DNA of 64,000 nt from Acidithiobacillus montserratensis. Its GTDB lineage: Bacteria > Pseudomonadota > Gammaproteobacteria > Acidithiobacillales > Acidithiobacillaceae. Shown piece after piece: positions 4,748 to 23,412 of the stretch. The position numbers and the translations under genes were made by a program. The notes under the pieces were generated by a model. The model had not been told where the DNA came from. It did no database searches and saw nothing but the letters and a program-made list of their open reading frames with translations. The stretch covers positions 1 to 64,000 of the forward strand of contig NZ_JABBOU010000041.1 of NCBI RefSeq assembly GCF_018853465.1, written 5' to 3'. Within the stretch, counting starts at the first letter, position 1. Each line of letters begins with the position of its first letter.

Positions 4748-5788
4748 TTATTCCGCTACCGCAGGCTCCACCACATCATCGGTAAAGGCCAGTGGATTTC
4801 CGGCAGCTGCCGCACGCACCTGTTGCTCGATACGAACAGCCAGATCCTTATGCTCTTTGAGATATTGCCGGGCATTATCCTTACCCTGACCAATCCGCTC
4901 GCCCTGATAGGAATACCAGGCCCCGCTTTTTTCAACGATCTCGAACTTGACACCCAGGTCCACCAGTTCGGAAAGACGGGAAATACCCTCGCCATAGTAA
5001 ATGGCAAATTCGGCTTCACGGAATGGCGGAGCGACCTTGTTTTTGACCACTTTCACCCGGGTGTCATTACCCATAACCTCGTCTCCCTTCTTGATAGCGC
5101 CAATCCGGCGGATATCCAGGCGCACCGAGGCATAGAATTTGAGGGCATTACCTCCGGTTGTGGTTTCCGGACTCCCGTACATGACACCGATTTTCATGCG
5201 AATCTGGTTGATGAAAATGACCAGGGTATTGGTCCGGGAGATATTGGCGGTCAGCTTGCGCAGCGCCTGACTCATCAAGCGCGCCTGCAAACCCACATGA
5301 GAGTCACCCATGTCGCCTTCGATTTCCGCCTTGGGGGTCAGAGCGGCTACCGAGTCCACCACGATCAGGTCCACCGCACCGGAGCGCACCAGCATGTCGG
5401 CAATCTCCAGCGCCTGTTCACCGGTATCCGGCTGGGAAACCAGCAGATTTTCCAGATCCACCCCCAGCTTGTGGGCATATCCGGGATCCAGCGCGTGTTC
5501 AGCGTCGATAAAGGCGGCGGTGCCTCCAGCCTGCTGACAACTGGCAATGGCGTGCAGGGTGAGCGTGGTTTTACCTGAAGATTCCGGCCCGTATATTTCC
5601 ACAACTCGACCGCGCGGCAATCCTCCGACACCCAGGGCCAGATCCAGACCCAGGGAGCCGGTGGAATAGACGGCGATATCCTTGATGGCATCGTGATCGC
5701 CCAGGCGCATTACCGCGCCCTTGCCGAACTGCTTGTCAATCTGGGACAAAGCGGCCGCAAGGGCCTTGCTGCGTTGATCATCCATCAT
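4748..5788 (-). CDS. recA: Recombinase RecA
   Basis: ATP-dependent strand-exchange protein that also stimulates LexA self-cleavage. It has the Walker A box GPESSGKTT, the [13 protein letters not shown] segment, and a loop 2 region around [21 protein letters not shown]. The open frame runs further upstream to 5866. I chose the ATG at 5788 because AAAGGA lies just before it on the minus strand and because the family begins [17 protein letters not shown] here. This gives 346 residues, close to other RecA proteins; the next ATG, 3 bases on, is equally possible. No E. coli-type LexA box (CTGT-N8-ACAG) is seen in the 175 bases upstream, so SOS control through such a box is not supported. Confidence 0.97.
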
Positions 5789-18671: not shown

Positions 18672-19466
18672 TCAATGCGACCACCAGCGTTTCAGTTTGG
18701 TGCGTAAGGAGTTATCTGACGGTTTTGCCGAACTGCGCAAACCAATACCCAACATGCGCAGTATTTCCCGGTCACGGGTCTGCACATATTGCGCTACTTT
18801 TTCCTGATCAGCGGCAGGAGGATCCTGGAATTCGACGCCTAATACCACTCCGGTAGCGCCGGCTACAAGGTTATCGACGAAACGGATCACAGCCGGCATA
18901 TGCAAGGGTTGACTATCACGGATTCTAAACACCAACTGGGTGAGAATTTCGTTCGGTTGAAAGGGATGATCCTTGGGGCAGCGACTCATAATCCGGATGC
19001 CACCCGCACTGATATCCTGCATTCTTCCAGCAACCATCAAGGCACCTTGACGGTAGATTTCCACTTCATCGGGATCCTGCACGGTGGGCGGTACTCGAAA
19101 AAGCTGGCGGCGCTGCAACTGATAGATTTCTTCAGGATACTGCAGGACGATACCCTCAGCATCATGGCGAATGATCGTACTGCGAAAACCACAAATGATC
19201 CCATCCACCCGGGAAAGCAGGGTGATGACTGTGCCAATTTCTATCTGTTTCGGGAAATGCAGGGGAAGATCAATCAGTAACTCAGGTTCAGACTGAACAT
19301 CCAGCAGCAGGGTATTGTAGCTCTGCACTTGATCATCCAGCCAGAGGGTGCAAAAAACATGCTCCCGCCAGAGATTTTCCAATATGCCCGAGGCCTTGAC
19401 CGAAGCGGTCACCCGATACCGTTCGGAAAACAAATGGTGACGCATTTCATGAATGGGTTCCGACAT
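18672..19466 (-). CDS. ycgR: Flagellar brake protein, YcgR/PilZ family
   Basis: Binds c-di-GMP and slows or biases the flagellar motor. The 264-residue protein has a YcgR N-terminal domain (about 1-112) and a C-terminal PilZ domain with both c-di-GMP signatures: R120-QLF-R124, and D151-x-S153-xx-G156 in DISAGG. The start at 19466 was chosen for the AAGGG site 8 bases upstream; the frame continues 25 codons further without protein-like sequence. It lies downstream of the broken GAF-GGDEF-EAL gene in the chemosensory operon, so an enzyme of c-di-GMP turnover and its effector are encoded together. Confidence 0.88.
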   Translation of the reverse strand: MSEPIHEMRHHLFSERYRVTASVKASGILENLWREHVFCTLWLDDQVQSYNTLLLDVQSEPELLIDLPLHFPKQIEIGTVITLLSRVDGIICGFRSTIIRHDAEGIVLQYPEEIYQLQRRQLFRVPPTVQDPDEVEIYRQGALMVAGRMQDISAGGIRIMSRCPKDHPFQPNEILTQLVFRIRDSQPLHMPAVIRFVDNLVAGATGVVLGVEFQDPPAADQEKVAQYVQTRDREILRMLGIGLRSSAKPSDNSLRTKLKRWWSH

Positions 19467-19546
19467 AGTATCTACCCTTTTCCAAAGACTATGGAATATT
19501 ACCAATACCCATGCCGGCTGTCGTCTCTCTATGCGCCACATGTTTC

Positions 19547-21034
19547 CTAAACGGATCCGCTTGGCTCAGGATGTATTTGTTGCCAGAGCTCCAGGAGATC
19601 CCGGGCACCAGCGGGGTCCAGCGGACGGATAACAGAGGGCAGCAAATAATTTTTCCAGAGAAAAAAAGCGTTCTCCGGAAGCGGTGGAGAAAGCAAATAG
19701 CCCTGGATATACCGACCACCCAGGAGCAACCATAAATGCAATTCTTCGGGGGTGGAAATCCCCTCTGCTACCAGTTCACAGGCAGTCAGACGACTAAGCA
19801 TGTGGCTGGCGCCTGCCACGCCAAAACTGGCCTTGTCCTGACGAAAAGCGCGAATAAAACTTTGATCCAGCTTCAGCTCATCAAAGTTCAAACGGGCTAC
19901 TGAAAGCAACGAAGAATATCCGGTCCCGAAATCGTCCATAGATAACTTGAAGCCACGACTTTGACACCAGGCCATCATCGGTAACACGGATTTGCGTCCC
20001 ATGACAGAAGCGGTTTCAGTGATTTCGAGGGTAAGCCCATGGCCATCCGGGCACAAACTTTCCACATCTTCCTTAAAAGCGGGATCCAGAAAATGTTTGG
20101 CGCCAATATTCAAAGAAACCTGTAAAGCAAGGCCCTCATCCTGGATCCGTTGACGCAGACGCACCGCCTCCTGGAGCGCCCAACGACCAAGAATGCGAAT
20201 CAGGTGAGCGTTTTCTTCCACATAGGGCATGAACTTGCCAGGCCCAATCCAGTGGCCTTGAGGAGGGCACCAGCGTGCCAACATTTCTACGCCGCTCAAG
20301 CAGTTTTTCTGCATATCCGCCTTGGGTTGAAGAAAAAACCGAATCTCGCCCCGCTGTACAGCCCCTGGAAAATCGCGTCTCACCCACAAACGTTGGCGGG
20401 CGCGCCGCGCCACCTCACCACCGTAAAGCCGGAAAGTATTCCCACCCTGTCGCTTGGCTTCAGATAGCGCTTCATCCGCCTGAGCCATCAGCATACATAC
20501 CTCGCGGCTATCTGCCGGAAATAACGACCAACCTAATGAGGTAGTCAGGTGGGCCTCCAGTGTTTTTTGCGCCGCAACCTGCACTGCCTGGAGTACATCC
20601 TGGCTATATTGTTCCAGCTGTGTTTCGCGAGAGAGAGGGATGAGCAATCCGAATTCATCGCCCCCCACCCTTGCCAGCACCGCATCAGAAAACTGCAGCG
20701 TGGTCTTTAACTGCCTGGCAATTGCCTGCAAACACTGATCCGCTGCAAGGGAACTAAAAGATGTATTGATCTCATTGAACAAATCGAGGTCCATTAAACC
20801 CAGGCCCAGCATCTCCGTGGCTGAGGACGCAGACTGCAACCGTTCTGAAACCAGATCTGTAAAATGTGAACGGTTTGGTAATCCTGTCAAAGTATCGGTT
20901 TGCAATAAATGCTCTTTTTCTCGAAGATCCTGCAATCGCTCAAGATAACGTTCCAGATCATGCAGTAGAGCTTCCCAATGAGCAATGAGATGATATCCAA
21001 ACAACCAACGACTGAGACGGGTAATTTCCAGCAC
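19547..21034 (-). CDS. GGDEF-EAL protein, C-terminal part of an amber-interrupted gene
   Basis: This 495-residue stretch holds a GGDEF domain (cyclase) and an EAL domain (phosphodiesterase). GGDEF is intact at 124-128, but the I-site Arg is missing (QFSD at 114-117). EAL reads E250-M-L and keeps the other catalytic pieces: SLNIGAKHF, LTLEITET, DDFGTGYSSL, LKLDQSFI and YIQGYLL. The first in-frame start is a GTG at 21034 with no ribosome site. The 14 codons before it are open back to a TAG, and the frame is the same as that of the upstream gene. Its first residues complete a GAF domain begun upstream, so this is most likely the 3' part of one gene rather than an independent one. Confidence 0.75.
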   Translation of the reverse strand: MLEITRLSRWLFGYHLIAHWEALLHDLERYLERLQDLREKEHLLQTDTLTGLPNRSHFTDLVSERLQSASSATEMLGLGLMDLDLFNEINTSFSSLAADQCLQAIARQLKTTLQFSDAVLARVGGDEFGLLIPLSRETQLEQYSQDVLQAVQVAAQKTLEAHLTTSLGWSLFPADSREVCMLMAQADEALSEAKRQGGNTFRLYGGEVARRARQRLWVRRDFPGAVQRGEIRFFLQPKADMQKNCLSGVEMLARWCPPQGHWIGPGKFMPYVEENAHLIRILGRWALQEAVRLRQRIQDEGLALQVSLNIGAKHFLDPAFKEDVESLCPDGHGLTLEITETASVMGRKSVLPMMAWCQSRGFKLSMDDFGTGYSSLLSVARLNFDELKLDQSFIRAFRQDKASFGVAGASHMLSRLTACELVAEGISTPEELHLWLLLGGRYIQGYLLSPPLPENAFFLWKNYLLPSVIRPLDPAGARDLLELWQQIHPEPSGSV

Positions 21035-21076
21035 AAAAACTGCATCTGGATGACGCGCATTTTCCGGAATAACCGG

Positions 21077-21079
21077 CTA
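21077..21079 (-). other. In-frame amber (TAG) codon splitting a GAF-GGDEF-EAL gene
   Basis: On the minus strand the frame reads REVIA, then TAG, then PVIPENARHPDAVFVLEITR with no shift of frame. The stop falls inside the GAF domain. One base change from a sense codon such as CAG, AAG or GAG would explain it. Alternatives are a sequencing error or real readthrough. Confidence 0.85.
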
Positions 21080-22366
21080 GGCAATCACCTCACGGAAGTC
21101 TTGCAAGTCTGGATACAGGGCGATGACTTTCGCCATTTCACCGGAAACATGGGGGGTACGCGGATCAACGCGCTGCCGCAAACGCCACGCGAGAGCAGGT
21201 AAAAGTTGTCCCCAGGGAGAGTTTTCGGGATCTGTGCTTAAGGGTAACTGCCGGAGAATATCGACCAGTCCGGGTTTGCGAGCGCAGGCGGCAATCACCG
21301 ATAAACTGCCTTGTTCCCCGCCGGGAACGGCTACATAGGCAGCCAGTGCCCCCGTCCCCAATACACTTAACTGCACCAGACCGGTGTATATTTCCCGGGC
21401 ATTTGCGGCTTCAGCCACCATTTCATGGAGGGTCTGATGGGCCCGTTGATAACGGCTCTCCACAAATCGGCGATACATCCATATGAGTGCCGCAACAGCC
21501 AGCGTGGCCTCTGCGGCCAGCAGCAGCAACGCCCAGATGTCCAGACGTTTTAACTGCTGCTGCAAGTATGAATTTTGAGGATTCCAGCGCGCACTGATTA
21601 TCCAGGGAGTGTGTTTTACCGGCAGGTCCAGATCTGCGGTCCATTCTGCCGGAACAGGCTTTCCCTGCTGCCAGTGTCCATTCTGCCATTGTGCCAGCAC
21701 CCGGTGATGATTATCCAGAAGTAGCAACATATGCGGAGATTCCAGACTGGCACTGGCATGCTGATTGCCAAACATGAGCTCCGCATGACAACTTCGTCCA
21801 GCTTTTTTGATGCGCTTTAGAGATGGTTGCAGTGGAACCGCAAAAAGCCGCAATGGGATATGCAGCAAACCTTTTGCATCTACAAATGGCTGATTGACCC
21901 CACCCTGCCAAATGAAACGGGAGTCGCTCCCAATAATCAGAGGATAGTTCACTATAAACTTGGCTGATTTTTGTCCATTTAGATTACAAGACACATTTTT
22001 GAGCCAGGGATGGACTTTGTTAAAGCGCTGCAGCAGATCCGGATTCAGCTTTCTGACCGGCAGGCTCGCCATGAATTGGAGATCACGCATATGCATTTCG
22101 ATCATGGCGGAAAGGTTACTGGAAAAGCTCTCGACCAGATGAACCGCCATATCTTTTGTCCGGTCCCGGGAACGCTCCAACAGATGTGCCTGCCAGCTGC
22201 CAATGCTGAAAACTGTCAACGCAGCCAGACTCATAAAAACCAGCATAATACCGAAGGTAAAAATACGCTGGCGACGCTGAATCTGCTGCGAAGCATGCAT
22301 CAATTTATTAAGGAGTTCGGATGTTGCGGCACTTTCAGTATGCAGTGTGGCATCATCTTGCGGCAT
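21077..22366 (-). CDS. Membrane sensor protein with truncated GAF domain, N-terminal part of an amber-interrupted gene
   Basis: A 429-residue protein with a membrane helix at about 35-57 and a second at about 274-300. The extracytoplasmic region between them of roughly 215 residues resembles Cache-like sensor domains only in layout. After the second helix comes a coiled linker and the start of a GAF domain (IYTGLVQLSVLGTGALAAYVAVP...SLSVIAACARKPGLVDIL). The frame stops at TAG 21077-21079 and continues in frame into the GGDEF-EAL part. Read through, it would be a sensor-GAF-GGDEF-EAL protein of about 939 residues. The start overlaps the cheB stop, so it is translated with the chemotaxis genes. 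Alone, this part would be a membrane sensor without an output domain. Confidence 0.75.
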   Translation of the reverse strand: MPQDDATLHTESAATSELLNKLMHASQQIQRRQRIFTFGIMLVFMSLAALTVFSIGSWQAHLLERSRDRTKDMAVHLVESFSSNLSAMIEMHMRDLQFMASLPVRKLNPDLLQRFNKVHPWLKNVSCNLNGQKSAKFIVNYPLIIGSDSRFIWQGGVNQPFVDAKGLLHIPLRLFAVPLQPSLKRIKKAGRSCHAELMFGNQHASASLESPHMLLLLDNHHRVLAQWQNGHWQQGKPVPAEWTADLDLPVKHTPWIISARWNPQNSYLQQQLKRLDIWALLLLAAEATLAVAALIWMYRRFVESRYQRAHQTLHEMVAEAANAREIYTGLVQLSVLGTGALAAYVAVPGGEQGSLSVIAACARKPGLVDILRQLPLSTDPENSPWGQLLPALAWRLRQRVDPRTPHVSGEMAKVIALYPDLQDFREVIA

Positions 22367-23412
22367 CAGCGCACCCCTTCAACGGTTCTTGGCAGACGGC
22401 TGGCAATTTGCTGCAAGGGCAGCACTTCATCCACTCCCCCGAGCTTGATAGCTTCTTTGGGCATGCCAAAAACCACACAACTGGATTCATCCTGGGCGAT
22501 GGTGTGCGCTCCTGCTCCATGCATTTCCAGTAAGCCCTGGGCGCCATCATCACCCATTCCAGTCATGATCACTCCCCAGGCATTGCGCCCTGCCACCTGG
22601 GCAACCGAGCGAAACAACACGTCTACGGAAGGACGGTGATGCTTGACCAAAGGTCCATCAAAGACCTGCACAGCAAATTGGGCGCCATTGCGTATCAGGC
22701 GCATGTGTTTACCGCCCGGCGCAATCAAGGCACGACCCGGCAAAACCCGATCGCCGTCCATGGCTTCACGCACTTCCAACGCACTGACGCTATTCAAGCG
22801 CGCCGCAAAAGCGGCCGTAAATTTTTCGGGCATATGCTGTACCACCACGATGCCCGGCACCGTCACCGGCAGAGCCCGTAACAGCACTTCCAGCGCCTGG
22901 GTGCCTCCCGTACTGGTTCCTACAGCAATGACTTTTTCAGTACTTTTCTGCAGGAGCAGATGCGCGGCAACGGGCAAGACCGCTGAAACCGGCTGCGGTC
23001 GCATGTTGCGTAAATTGGCGCGAGCAGCAGACTTGACTGCACGAATGATTTCCGGGGCATCTTTTTGCAAAAAGTCACGAAGACCACTCTGGGGCTTCTG
23101 GATGATCTGGACGGCACCGGCAGCCAGGGCATCCAGAGTGATCTGCGCGCCGGATTCAGCAAGACTGGAGCAAATAATCACCGGTAACGGATGTTCTCTC
23201 ATGATTTTCCGCAGGAAAGTCACTCCGTCCATGCGTGGCATTTCAATATCCAGAATAACCACATCGGGCCATAGCCGCTGCATGCGGTCCCAGGCAAACA
23301 CGGGGTCCTGAGCCGTGGCCAGAATCGTAATTTCCGGGTCCTGACTTAATGCGGCCTGTAGTACCTGACGCACGACTGCCGAGTCATCGACAATAAAAAC
23401 CTGTATGGTCAT
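22366..23412 (-). CDS. cheB: Chemotaxis protein-glutamate methylesterase CheB
   Basis: Removes methyl groups from, and deamidates, chemoreceptors when phosphorylated by CheA. The receiver domain (1-125) has DD at 9-10, D55 in [11 protein letters not shown], and QKP. The methylesterase domain shows the catalytic Ser in AVGTSTGG, the His in VVQHMPEKF and the Asp in MTGMGDDGA. The 348 residues are normal. It lies 18 bases after cheD and overlaps the next gene by one base. Confidence 0.97.

What the first reader, a model, noticed from the sequence alone, without database searches (positions are those of the whole stretch)
19547..22366. One sensor-GAF-GGDEF-EAL gene split by an in-frame amber codon
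The two neighbouring reading frames are in the same phase and separated only by TAG (21079-21077) plus 14 open codons. The residues on either side together complete a GAF domain (REVIA / PVIPENARHPDAVFVLEITR). The downstream part has only a GTG start without a ribosome site. So the c-di-GMP enzyme of this operon is truncated (pseudogene), produced by readthrough, or the stop is an error. All catalytic motifs downstream look intact, which suggests a recent event or residual expression.
Basis: seen in the sequence. Interest (0 to 1): 0.75.

Follow-up and report, generated by a model that had tools for sequence, protein, structure and literature searches.

The report
Recently broken c-di-GMP enzyme gene
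In this acid-loving sulfur bacterium, a signalling-enzyme gene in the swimming and chemotaxis cluster has been cut in two by one new stop codon, most likely a fresh and ordinary loss of the gene rather than a special decoding trick.

Summary
On the minus strand a TAG at 21079-21077 splits one reading frame of 429 + 509 codons between cheB and a PilZ gene. The genome belongs to Acidithiobacillus (nearest relative seen: A. marinus SH). The 8 full-length orthologues found in relatives, and the 8 full-length orthologues in the protein database, are single uninterrupted proteins with tryptophan at this position. The stop lies inside a GAF domain that Pfam misses but whose predicted fold matches solved GAF domains. 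A read or assembly error is unlikely: the 429-aa truncated protein is recorded on two contigs, the longer of 2.88 Mb, whereas the window's contig is 64.6 kb. I found no UAG-reading tRNA among the 43 tRNA genes seen, no ribosome site at the GTG restart and no unusual RNA fold. Downstream of the stop there is no relaxed selection, so the stop is recent or the downstream part still works. Three congeners keep only remnants of this gene. Best reading: a very young pseudogene. Leftover activity is possible, as in Shigella diguanylate cyclase pseudogenes (PMC11327459). Interest is low.

The parts
21080..22366 (-). First part of the broken gene: 429 codons; two long hydrophobic helices (about residues 36-57 and 276-298) around a probable periplasmic sensor region, then most of a GAF domain
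   Evidence: helices and strands from the low-confidence model of the intact A. marinus protein; membrane topology inferred by eye
21077..21079 (-). In-frame TAG stop codon, at a position that is tryptophan in the full-length relatives seen
19550..21076 (-). Same-frame continuation, 509 open codons: end of GAF, GGDEF, EAL
20900..21472 (-). GAF domain region, split by the stop in the strand before its last strand and helix
   Evidence: model made from intact relatives; coordinates transferred
20438..20899 (-). GGDEF domain (PF00990), with GGDEF sequence
19682..20377 (-). EAL domain (PF00563)
21032..21034 (-). GTG, first possible restart after the stop; no SD-like pairing
   Evidence: +0.4 kcal/mol
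20492..20494 (-). In-frame ATG with SD-like GCGAGG upstream (-7.2 kcal/mol, the 5% background level); could at most give an EAL-only product
   Evidence: of 16 start codons tested one pairs more strongly (TTG 20647, -9.3, just after the GGDEF motif) and one equally (ATG 20488)
22366..23412 (-). cheB; its stop overlaps the start of the broken gene by one base
   Evidence: PF01339, PF00072
18672..19541 (-). PilZ-domain (YcgR-like) gene directly downstream
   Evidence: PF07238; 'YcgR-like' recalled

Best explanation
The gene encodes (in relatives) a membrane-anchored sensor-GAF-GGDEF-EAL protein of about 940 residues that sits in the chemotaxis/flagellar cluster between cheB and a PilZ gene, and that probably makes or breaks c-di-GMP to tune motility. 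In this lineage one recent nonsense substitution at a conserved tryptophan position stops translation inside the GAF domain. Ribosomes then release a 429-residue membrane fragment without either catalytic domain, which is probably misfolded, and the GGDEF-EAL part is not made in useful amounts. It is a nascent pseudogene whose downstream half has not yet had time to decay. Shown: the stop, its absence in the relatives seen, no relaxed selection downstream, remnants in congeners. Inferred: loss of function, and the c-di-GMP role in motility.
For: Single uninterrupted frame of 912-973 codons in 8 of 8 full-length orthologous loci with tryptophan at the stop position in 8 of 8, and in 8 of 8 full-length database orthologues P0030-P0037 (three further hits, P0038-P0040, cover only 44-46% and were not compared). 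The 9 bases before and 12 bases after the stop codon equal those of A. marinus. No CTA anticodon among the 43 tRNA genes found. No SD-like pairing at GTG 21034. RNA fold around the stop ordinary, z = 0.27. The gene is dispensable in the genus: of 16 same-genus genomes searched, 5 hold it intact (G004, G007, G010, G015, G016), 3 hold remnants with large deletions, stops or a frameshift (G003, G005, G009), and 8 gave no orthologue. No second copy in the genome: the next match to the catalytic part is 33% identical, to the first part 29%.
Against: Downstream of the stop the window's branch has 14 synonymous and 4 nonsynonymous changes against 17 and 5 on the A. marinus branch: no sign of relaxed selection. 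This is expected for a stop younger than about 13-22% of that branch but equally expected if the downstream part still functions. The other che/flagellar frames of the window that could be compared are uninterrupted (1 of 44 interrupted), so the motility cluster itself is not decaying here. No expression data.
Confidence: 0.75

Rival explanations
1. The downstream GGDEF-EAL half is still made as a separate protein by internal initiation, so the gene has become two genes or keeps residual, unregulated activity.
For: No relaxed selection downstream. Precedent: Shigella flexneri dgcE, dgcQ and dgcN carry nonsense mutations before GGDEF and still produce c-di-GMP, expressed as several proteins (PMC11327459, abstract and passages seen). 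SD-like pairing precedes TTG 20647 and ATG 20494/20488.
Against: GTG 21034 has no SD-like pairing; the next in-frame ATGs lie 89 and 95 codons after the stop, inside GGDEF; the better-paired starts (20647, 20494, 20488) lie behind the GGDEF motif and could give only EAL, and pairing of -7.2 is the 5% level of background with 16 starts tested. In the Shigella cases a methionine lies a few codons after the stop or upstream of it (Table 1 passage); here no ATG lies close after it. No relative seen encodes two proteins.
Confidence: 0.12
2. Low-level or regulated readthrough of UAG (near-cognate decoding) gives a small amount of full-length enzyme, perhaps kept by selection.
For: Frame, domains and motifs intact downstream; no relaxed selection; stop followed by C, recalled as a leaky context in enterobacteria. 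Readthrough is discussed as one possibility for the Shigella genes (PMC11327459, passage).
Against: No UAG-reading tRNA found (nothing typed as tRNA-Ile or Ala-TGC was seen either, so the set is not complete). TAG terminates 4 of the 38 window genes examined, including this gene's own end. No changed bases next to the stop relative to A. marinus and no notable RNA structure.
Confidence: 0.08
3. The TAG is a sequencing or assembly error.
For: The window lies in a 178-contig draft; a single-base call decides everything; raw reads were not available.
Against: The 429-aa protein is recorded as one sequence on two contigs, the longest of 2,881,362 bases, while the window's contig has 64,613; no other interrupted frame among 44 compared, so the error rate is low.
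Confidence: 0.05

Closest known systems
Full-length orthologue in Acidithiobacillus marinus SH (P0031, named hypothetical protein / GGDEF-domain containing protein by its sources)
   Same: Same place between cheB and the PilZ gene, same domains, 84.8% identity before and 96.3% after the stop position
   Different: One uninterrupted 940-residue frame
Nonsense-mutated diguanylate cyclase genes of Shigella flexneri (dgcE, dgcQ, dgcN; PMC11327459, abstract and passages seen)
   Same: Premature stop before an otherwise intact GGDEF domain
   Different: There c-di-GMP production was measured and methionines lie close after or before the stop; here nothing is measured and no ATG lies close after it
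Strain-specific truncations of c-di-GMP turnover proteins (YcgG, YciR) reviewed in PMC10333796 (passages seen)
   Same: Truncation of a c-di-GMP gene within a lineage
   Different: Those truncations leave a working catalytic domain; here both catalytic domains lie after the stop

Membership tests
Pseudogene by nonsense mutation | Uninterrupted orthologues with a sense codon at the stop position | tested here: met
   8 of 8 full-length orthologous loci and 8 of 8 full-length database orthologues
Pseudogene by nonsense mutation | Relaxed selection after the lesion | tested here: not met
   14 syn/4 nonsyn on the window's branch versus 17/5 on the sister branch; therefore only 'very young pseudogene' can be claimed
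Pseudogene by nonsense mutation | No functional product | not testable with these tools
   no expression or activity data
Programmed stop-codon readthrough gene | In-frame stop conserved across relatives | tested here: not met
   none of the full-length relatives compared has it
Programmed stop-codon readthrough gene | Suppressor tRNA or a stimulatory structure or context | tested here: inconclusive
   no CTA anticodon in the 43 tRNA genes found, but nothing typed as tRNA-Ile was seen, so the set is incomplete; RNA fold z = 0.27
Hybrid GGDEF-EAL c-di-GMP enzyme | GGDEF and EAL domains with catalytic motifs | tested here: met
   PF00990 and PF00563 far above cut-off; GGDEF motif in sequence; the EAL motif reads EML, with DDFGTGYSS present; motif meanings recalled
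Hybrid GGDEF-EAL c-di-GMP enzyme | Enzyme activity | not testable with these tools
   no assay; synthase or phosphodiesterase direction unknown
GAF domain | Sequence profile match | tested here: inconclusive
   no GAF family listed in Pfam at E up to 5 (filters drop most matches above 0.1)
GAF domain | Fold | tested here: met

The most novel reading that the evidence does not exclude
The stop is kept by selection: the 429-residue membrane sensor with an incomplete GAF domain and a separately translated GGDEF-EAL (or EAL-only) protein, or a small readthrough fraction, together form a split or dosage-limited c-di-GMP module for the chemotaxis cluster, so that purifying selection on the catalytic half continues across the stop.
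Probability: 0.1. Interest if true: 0.5.

Novelty: new member of a known kind. Interest (0 to 1): 0.2.

Why it matters
As a very young pseudogene it is a modest example of how c-di-GMP enzymes near motility genes come and go in Acidithiobacillus, a genus used in metal leaching. It also warns annotators: the catalytic half could be predicted as an independent enzyme although it probably has no working start. If the catalytic half were still made, it would be a natural case of a sensor uncoupled from its enzyme, testable with a tag fusion.

Tried and rejected
1. General UAG recoding or suppression: no CTA anticodon among the 43 tRNA genes found, TAG used as terminator in 4 of 38 window genes examined. 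Rejected as unlikely, not excluded.

2. A second amber-interrupted GGDEF-EAL gene in the same genome (G000:C137, '1 TAG'). Looked into: the stop is at the edge where homology to the intact relative ends, about 140 bases from the contig end, with another stop two codons further up; it is a 5'-truncated gene, not a clean amber. Not evidence for recoding.

3. A second interrupted frame in the window's flagellar cluster (window 49013-47811): the mechanical ORF of A. marinus has a spurious upstream extension lying over the gene before it; the FliP frame itself, 48599-47808, is uninterrupted. Counting: 46 rows, minus 2 rows of under 20% coverage, gives 44; 1 of these (the gene of the finding) is interrupted. 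Hits under 45% identity and overlapping frames had been dropped by the script.

4. RNA structure after the stop and alternative starts: nothing convincing, though TTG 20647 (-9.3) and ATG 20494/20488 (-7.2) pair with the anti-SD.

5. The full-length structure was of low confidence (pLDDT 58.9); its matches mainly repeat GGDEF and EAL and are not leaned on. The viral fold search and the NCBIfam scan (only GGDEF/EAL matches in the 25 rows shown, the equivalogs far below their cut-offs) added nothing. The plasmid search found nothing.

6. Naming the species: the paper on strain M4-SHS-6 (PMC12160438, whole text) describes a chromosome of another length (3,003,844), so it is not the 2.88-Mb record; the species was not identified. 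Searches were read as listings; of PMC11327459, PMC10333796, PMC4331095 and PMC8886135 passages were seen.

7. Limits: an intact allele within the same species cannot be excluded, because the protein database is clustered at 90% and P0030 or P0031 could hide it; each protein search scored only the roughly 8,000 candidates sharing most words. One search used E <= 1e-70, so weak remnants of the catalytic part could be missed.

Full report
What is there. On the minus strand, an ORF of 429 codons (22366-21077) starts at an ATG overlapping the end of cheB by one base and ends at TAG 21079-21077. The same frame then stays open for 509 codons to the gene's own TAG at 19549-19547, followed by a PilZ gene. 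Pfam finds GGDEF and EAL in the second part and nothing in the first. The finding's coordinates, phase and 14-codon gap are correct.

One gene, not two. In relatives the gene is a single frame of 912 to 973 codons in 8 full-length orthologous loci (G004, G007, G010, G015, G016 of the same genus and G019, G022, G024 of the same family). At the stop position all 8 have tryptophan, as do the 8 full-length orthologues in the protein database (P0030-P0037; P0031 is A. marinus SH, the same as G016, and others may overlap with the loci; the other 3 of the 11 hits cover under half the query and were not compared). The neighbours are, by Pfam, MCP, CheW, CheR, CheD, CheB upstream and PilZ, FliK and an FlhB C-terminal-like frame downstream; the order is shared with A. 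marinus, G010, G007 and G015. The bases immediately around the stop (9 before, 12 after) are those of A. marinus.

Is the stop real? The database holds the 429-residue protein as one sequence on 2 contigs, the longest 2,881,362 bases; the window's contig has 64,613. So at least one other assembly has the same end. I could not see the records' names or reads, so independence of the data is inferred.

Is it decoded? The 43 tRNA genes found with the Rfam model (13 of them fetched) were typed by ARAGORN: none has the anticodon CTA. TAG ends 4 of the 38 window genes examined, this one included. The RNA around the stop folds no better than shuffles (z 0.27). At GTG 21034 the anti-SD pairing is +0.4 kcal/mol, against -8.0 at the gene's true start. 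Of 16 in-frame ATG/GTG/TTG codons in the 215 codons after the stop, three reach the 5% level of background (-7.2): TTG 20647 (-9.3) and ATG 20494 and 20488 (-7.2). All three lie behind the GGDEF motif and could give only an EAL-bearing product.

How old is it? With G010 and G004 as outgroups, changes downstream of the stop are 14 synonymous and 4 nonsynonymous on the window's branch and 17 and 5 on the A. marinus branch; upstream they are 21 and 27 against 16 and 28. If the downstream part became free of constraint at the stop, that happened in at most the last 13-22% of the branch (one-sided 95%, neutral N:S of 3.27 to 2.0). An intact relative nearer than A. marinus exists (P0030, 87.9% before and 97.1% after the stop); since that split the window's lineage has 5 own amino-acid changes downstream against 8 in P0030, with 2 unresolved. 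Thus the event is recent, or the downstream half is still used; these data do not separate the two.

Surroundings. Compared with A. marinus, 1 of 44 comparable frames (ORFs of at least 100 aa in three fetched stretches) is interrupted in the window: this one (see Tried and rejected for the dropped rows). The gene is being lost elsewhere too. G003 keeps late pieces in one frame (residues 539-680 and 753-935 of P0032) with a stop and a gap between them and little before. G005 keeps residues 1-59 and then, in another frame, about the last 85 residues, with a further stop, beside a cheB of which only residues 235-347 match. G009 keeps about 90 N-terminal residues before a stop, with no match in the rest of its contig. 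The other 8 of 16 same-genus genomes gave no orthologue at the thresholds used. The window's genome has no second copy: next matches are 33% and 29%.

Mechanism. Most likely a new nonsense change removed both catalytic domains of a che-cluster c-di-GMP enzyme; the fragment is probably misfolded and degraded. Loss of translation over 1.5 kb could also lower expression of the PilZ gene after it (polarity; inference). c-di-GMP regulates motility and attachment in A. caldus (PMC4331095, passages). Precedent for leftover activity is real: Shigella flexneri dgcE, dgcQ and dgcN with nonsense mutations before GGDEF still make c-di-GMP (PMC11327459, abstract and passages), so 'pseudogene' here is a prediction about the product, not a measurement.

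Verdict. Observation confirmed; interpretation supported in its first form (recent truncation). It is an ordinary kind of event with a small unexplored residue. A search for 'stop codon readthrough' with 'diguanylate cyclase' returned only the Shigella paper.

Noticed in passing
L006 (G000:C137) 1468-2739, contig end: A second GGDEF-EAL gene of the same genome is cut off at its 5' side: homology to the G010 protein begins at residue 487 of 904 and unmatched sequence with stops precedes it; in A. marinus (L116) the same gene matches only from residue 326. Together with the window's gene this hints at erosion of c-di-GMP genes in this pair of lineages.
   Followed up: partly
L060 (G004) 4856-5197 and L063 (G005) 6273-5935: In both genomes only cheB residues 235 to the end match, and the cheW, cheR, cheD and receptor genes gave no match in the fetched stretches: an apparently shared deletion of the chemotaxis operon. 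G004 nevertheless keeps the GGDEF-EAL gene intact, G005 does not.
   Followed up: partly
window 22366-21080 versus 21076-19550: The sensor half evolves much faster than the catalytic half between the window and A. marinus: identity 84.8% against 96.3%; dN 0.083 against 0.019, dS 0.24 against 0.19. The pair G010-G004 does not show this (dN/dS 0.17 and 0.18).
   Followed up: partly
window 18672-19541: The PilZ gene may start at an inner ATG (19466, SD-like AAAAGGG, -4.6 kcal/mol) rather than at 19541 (-3.3); start not settled.
   Followed up: no
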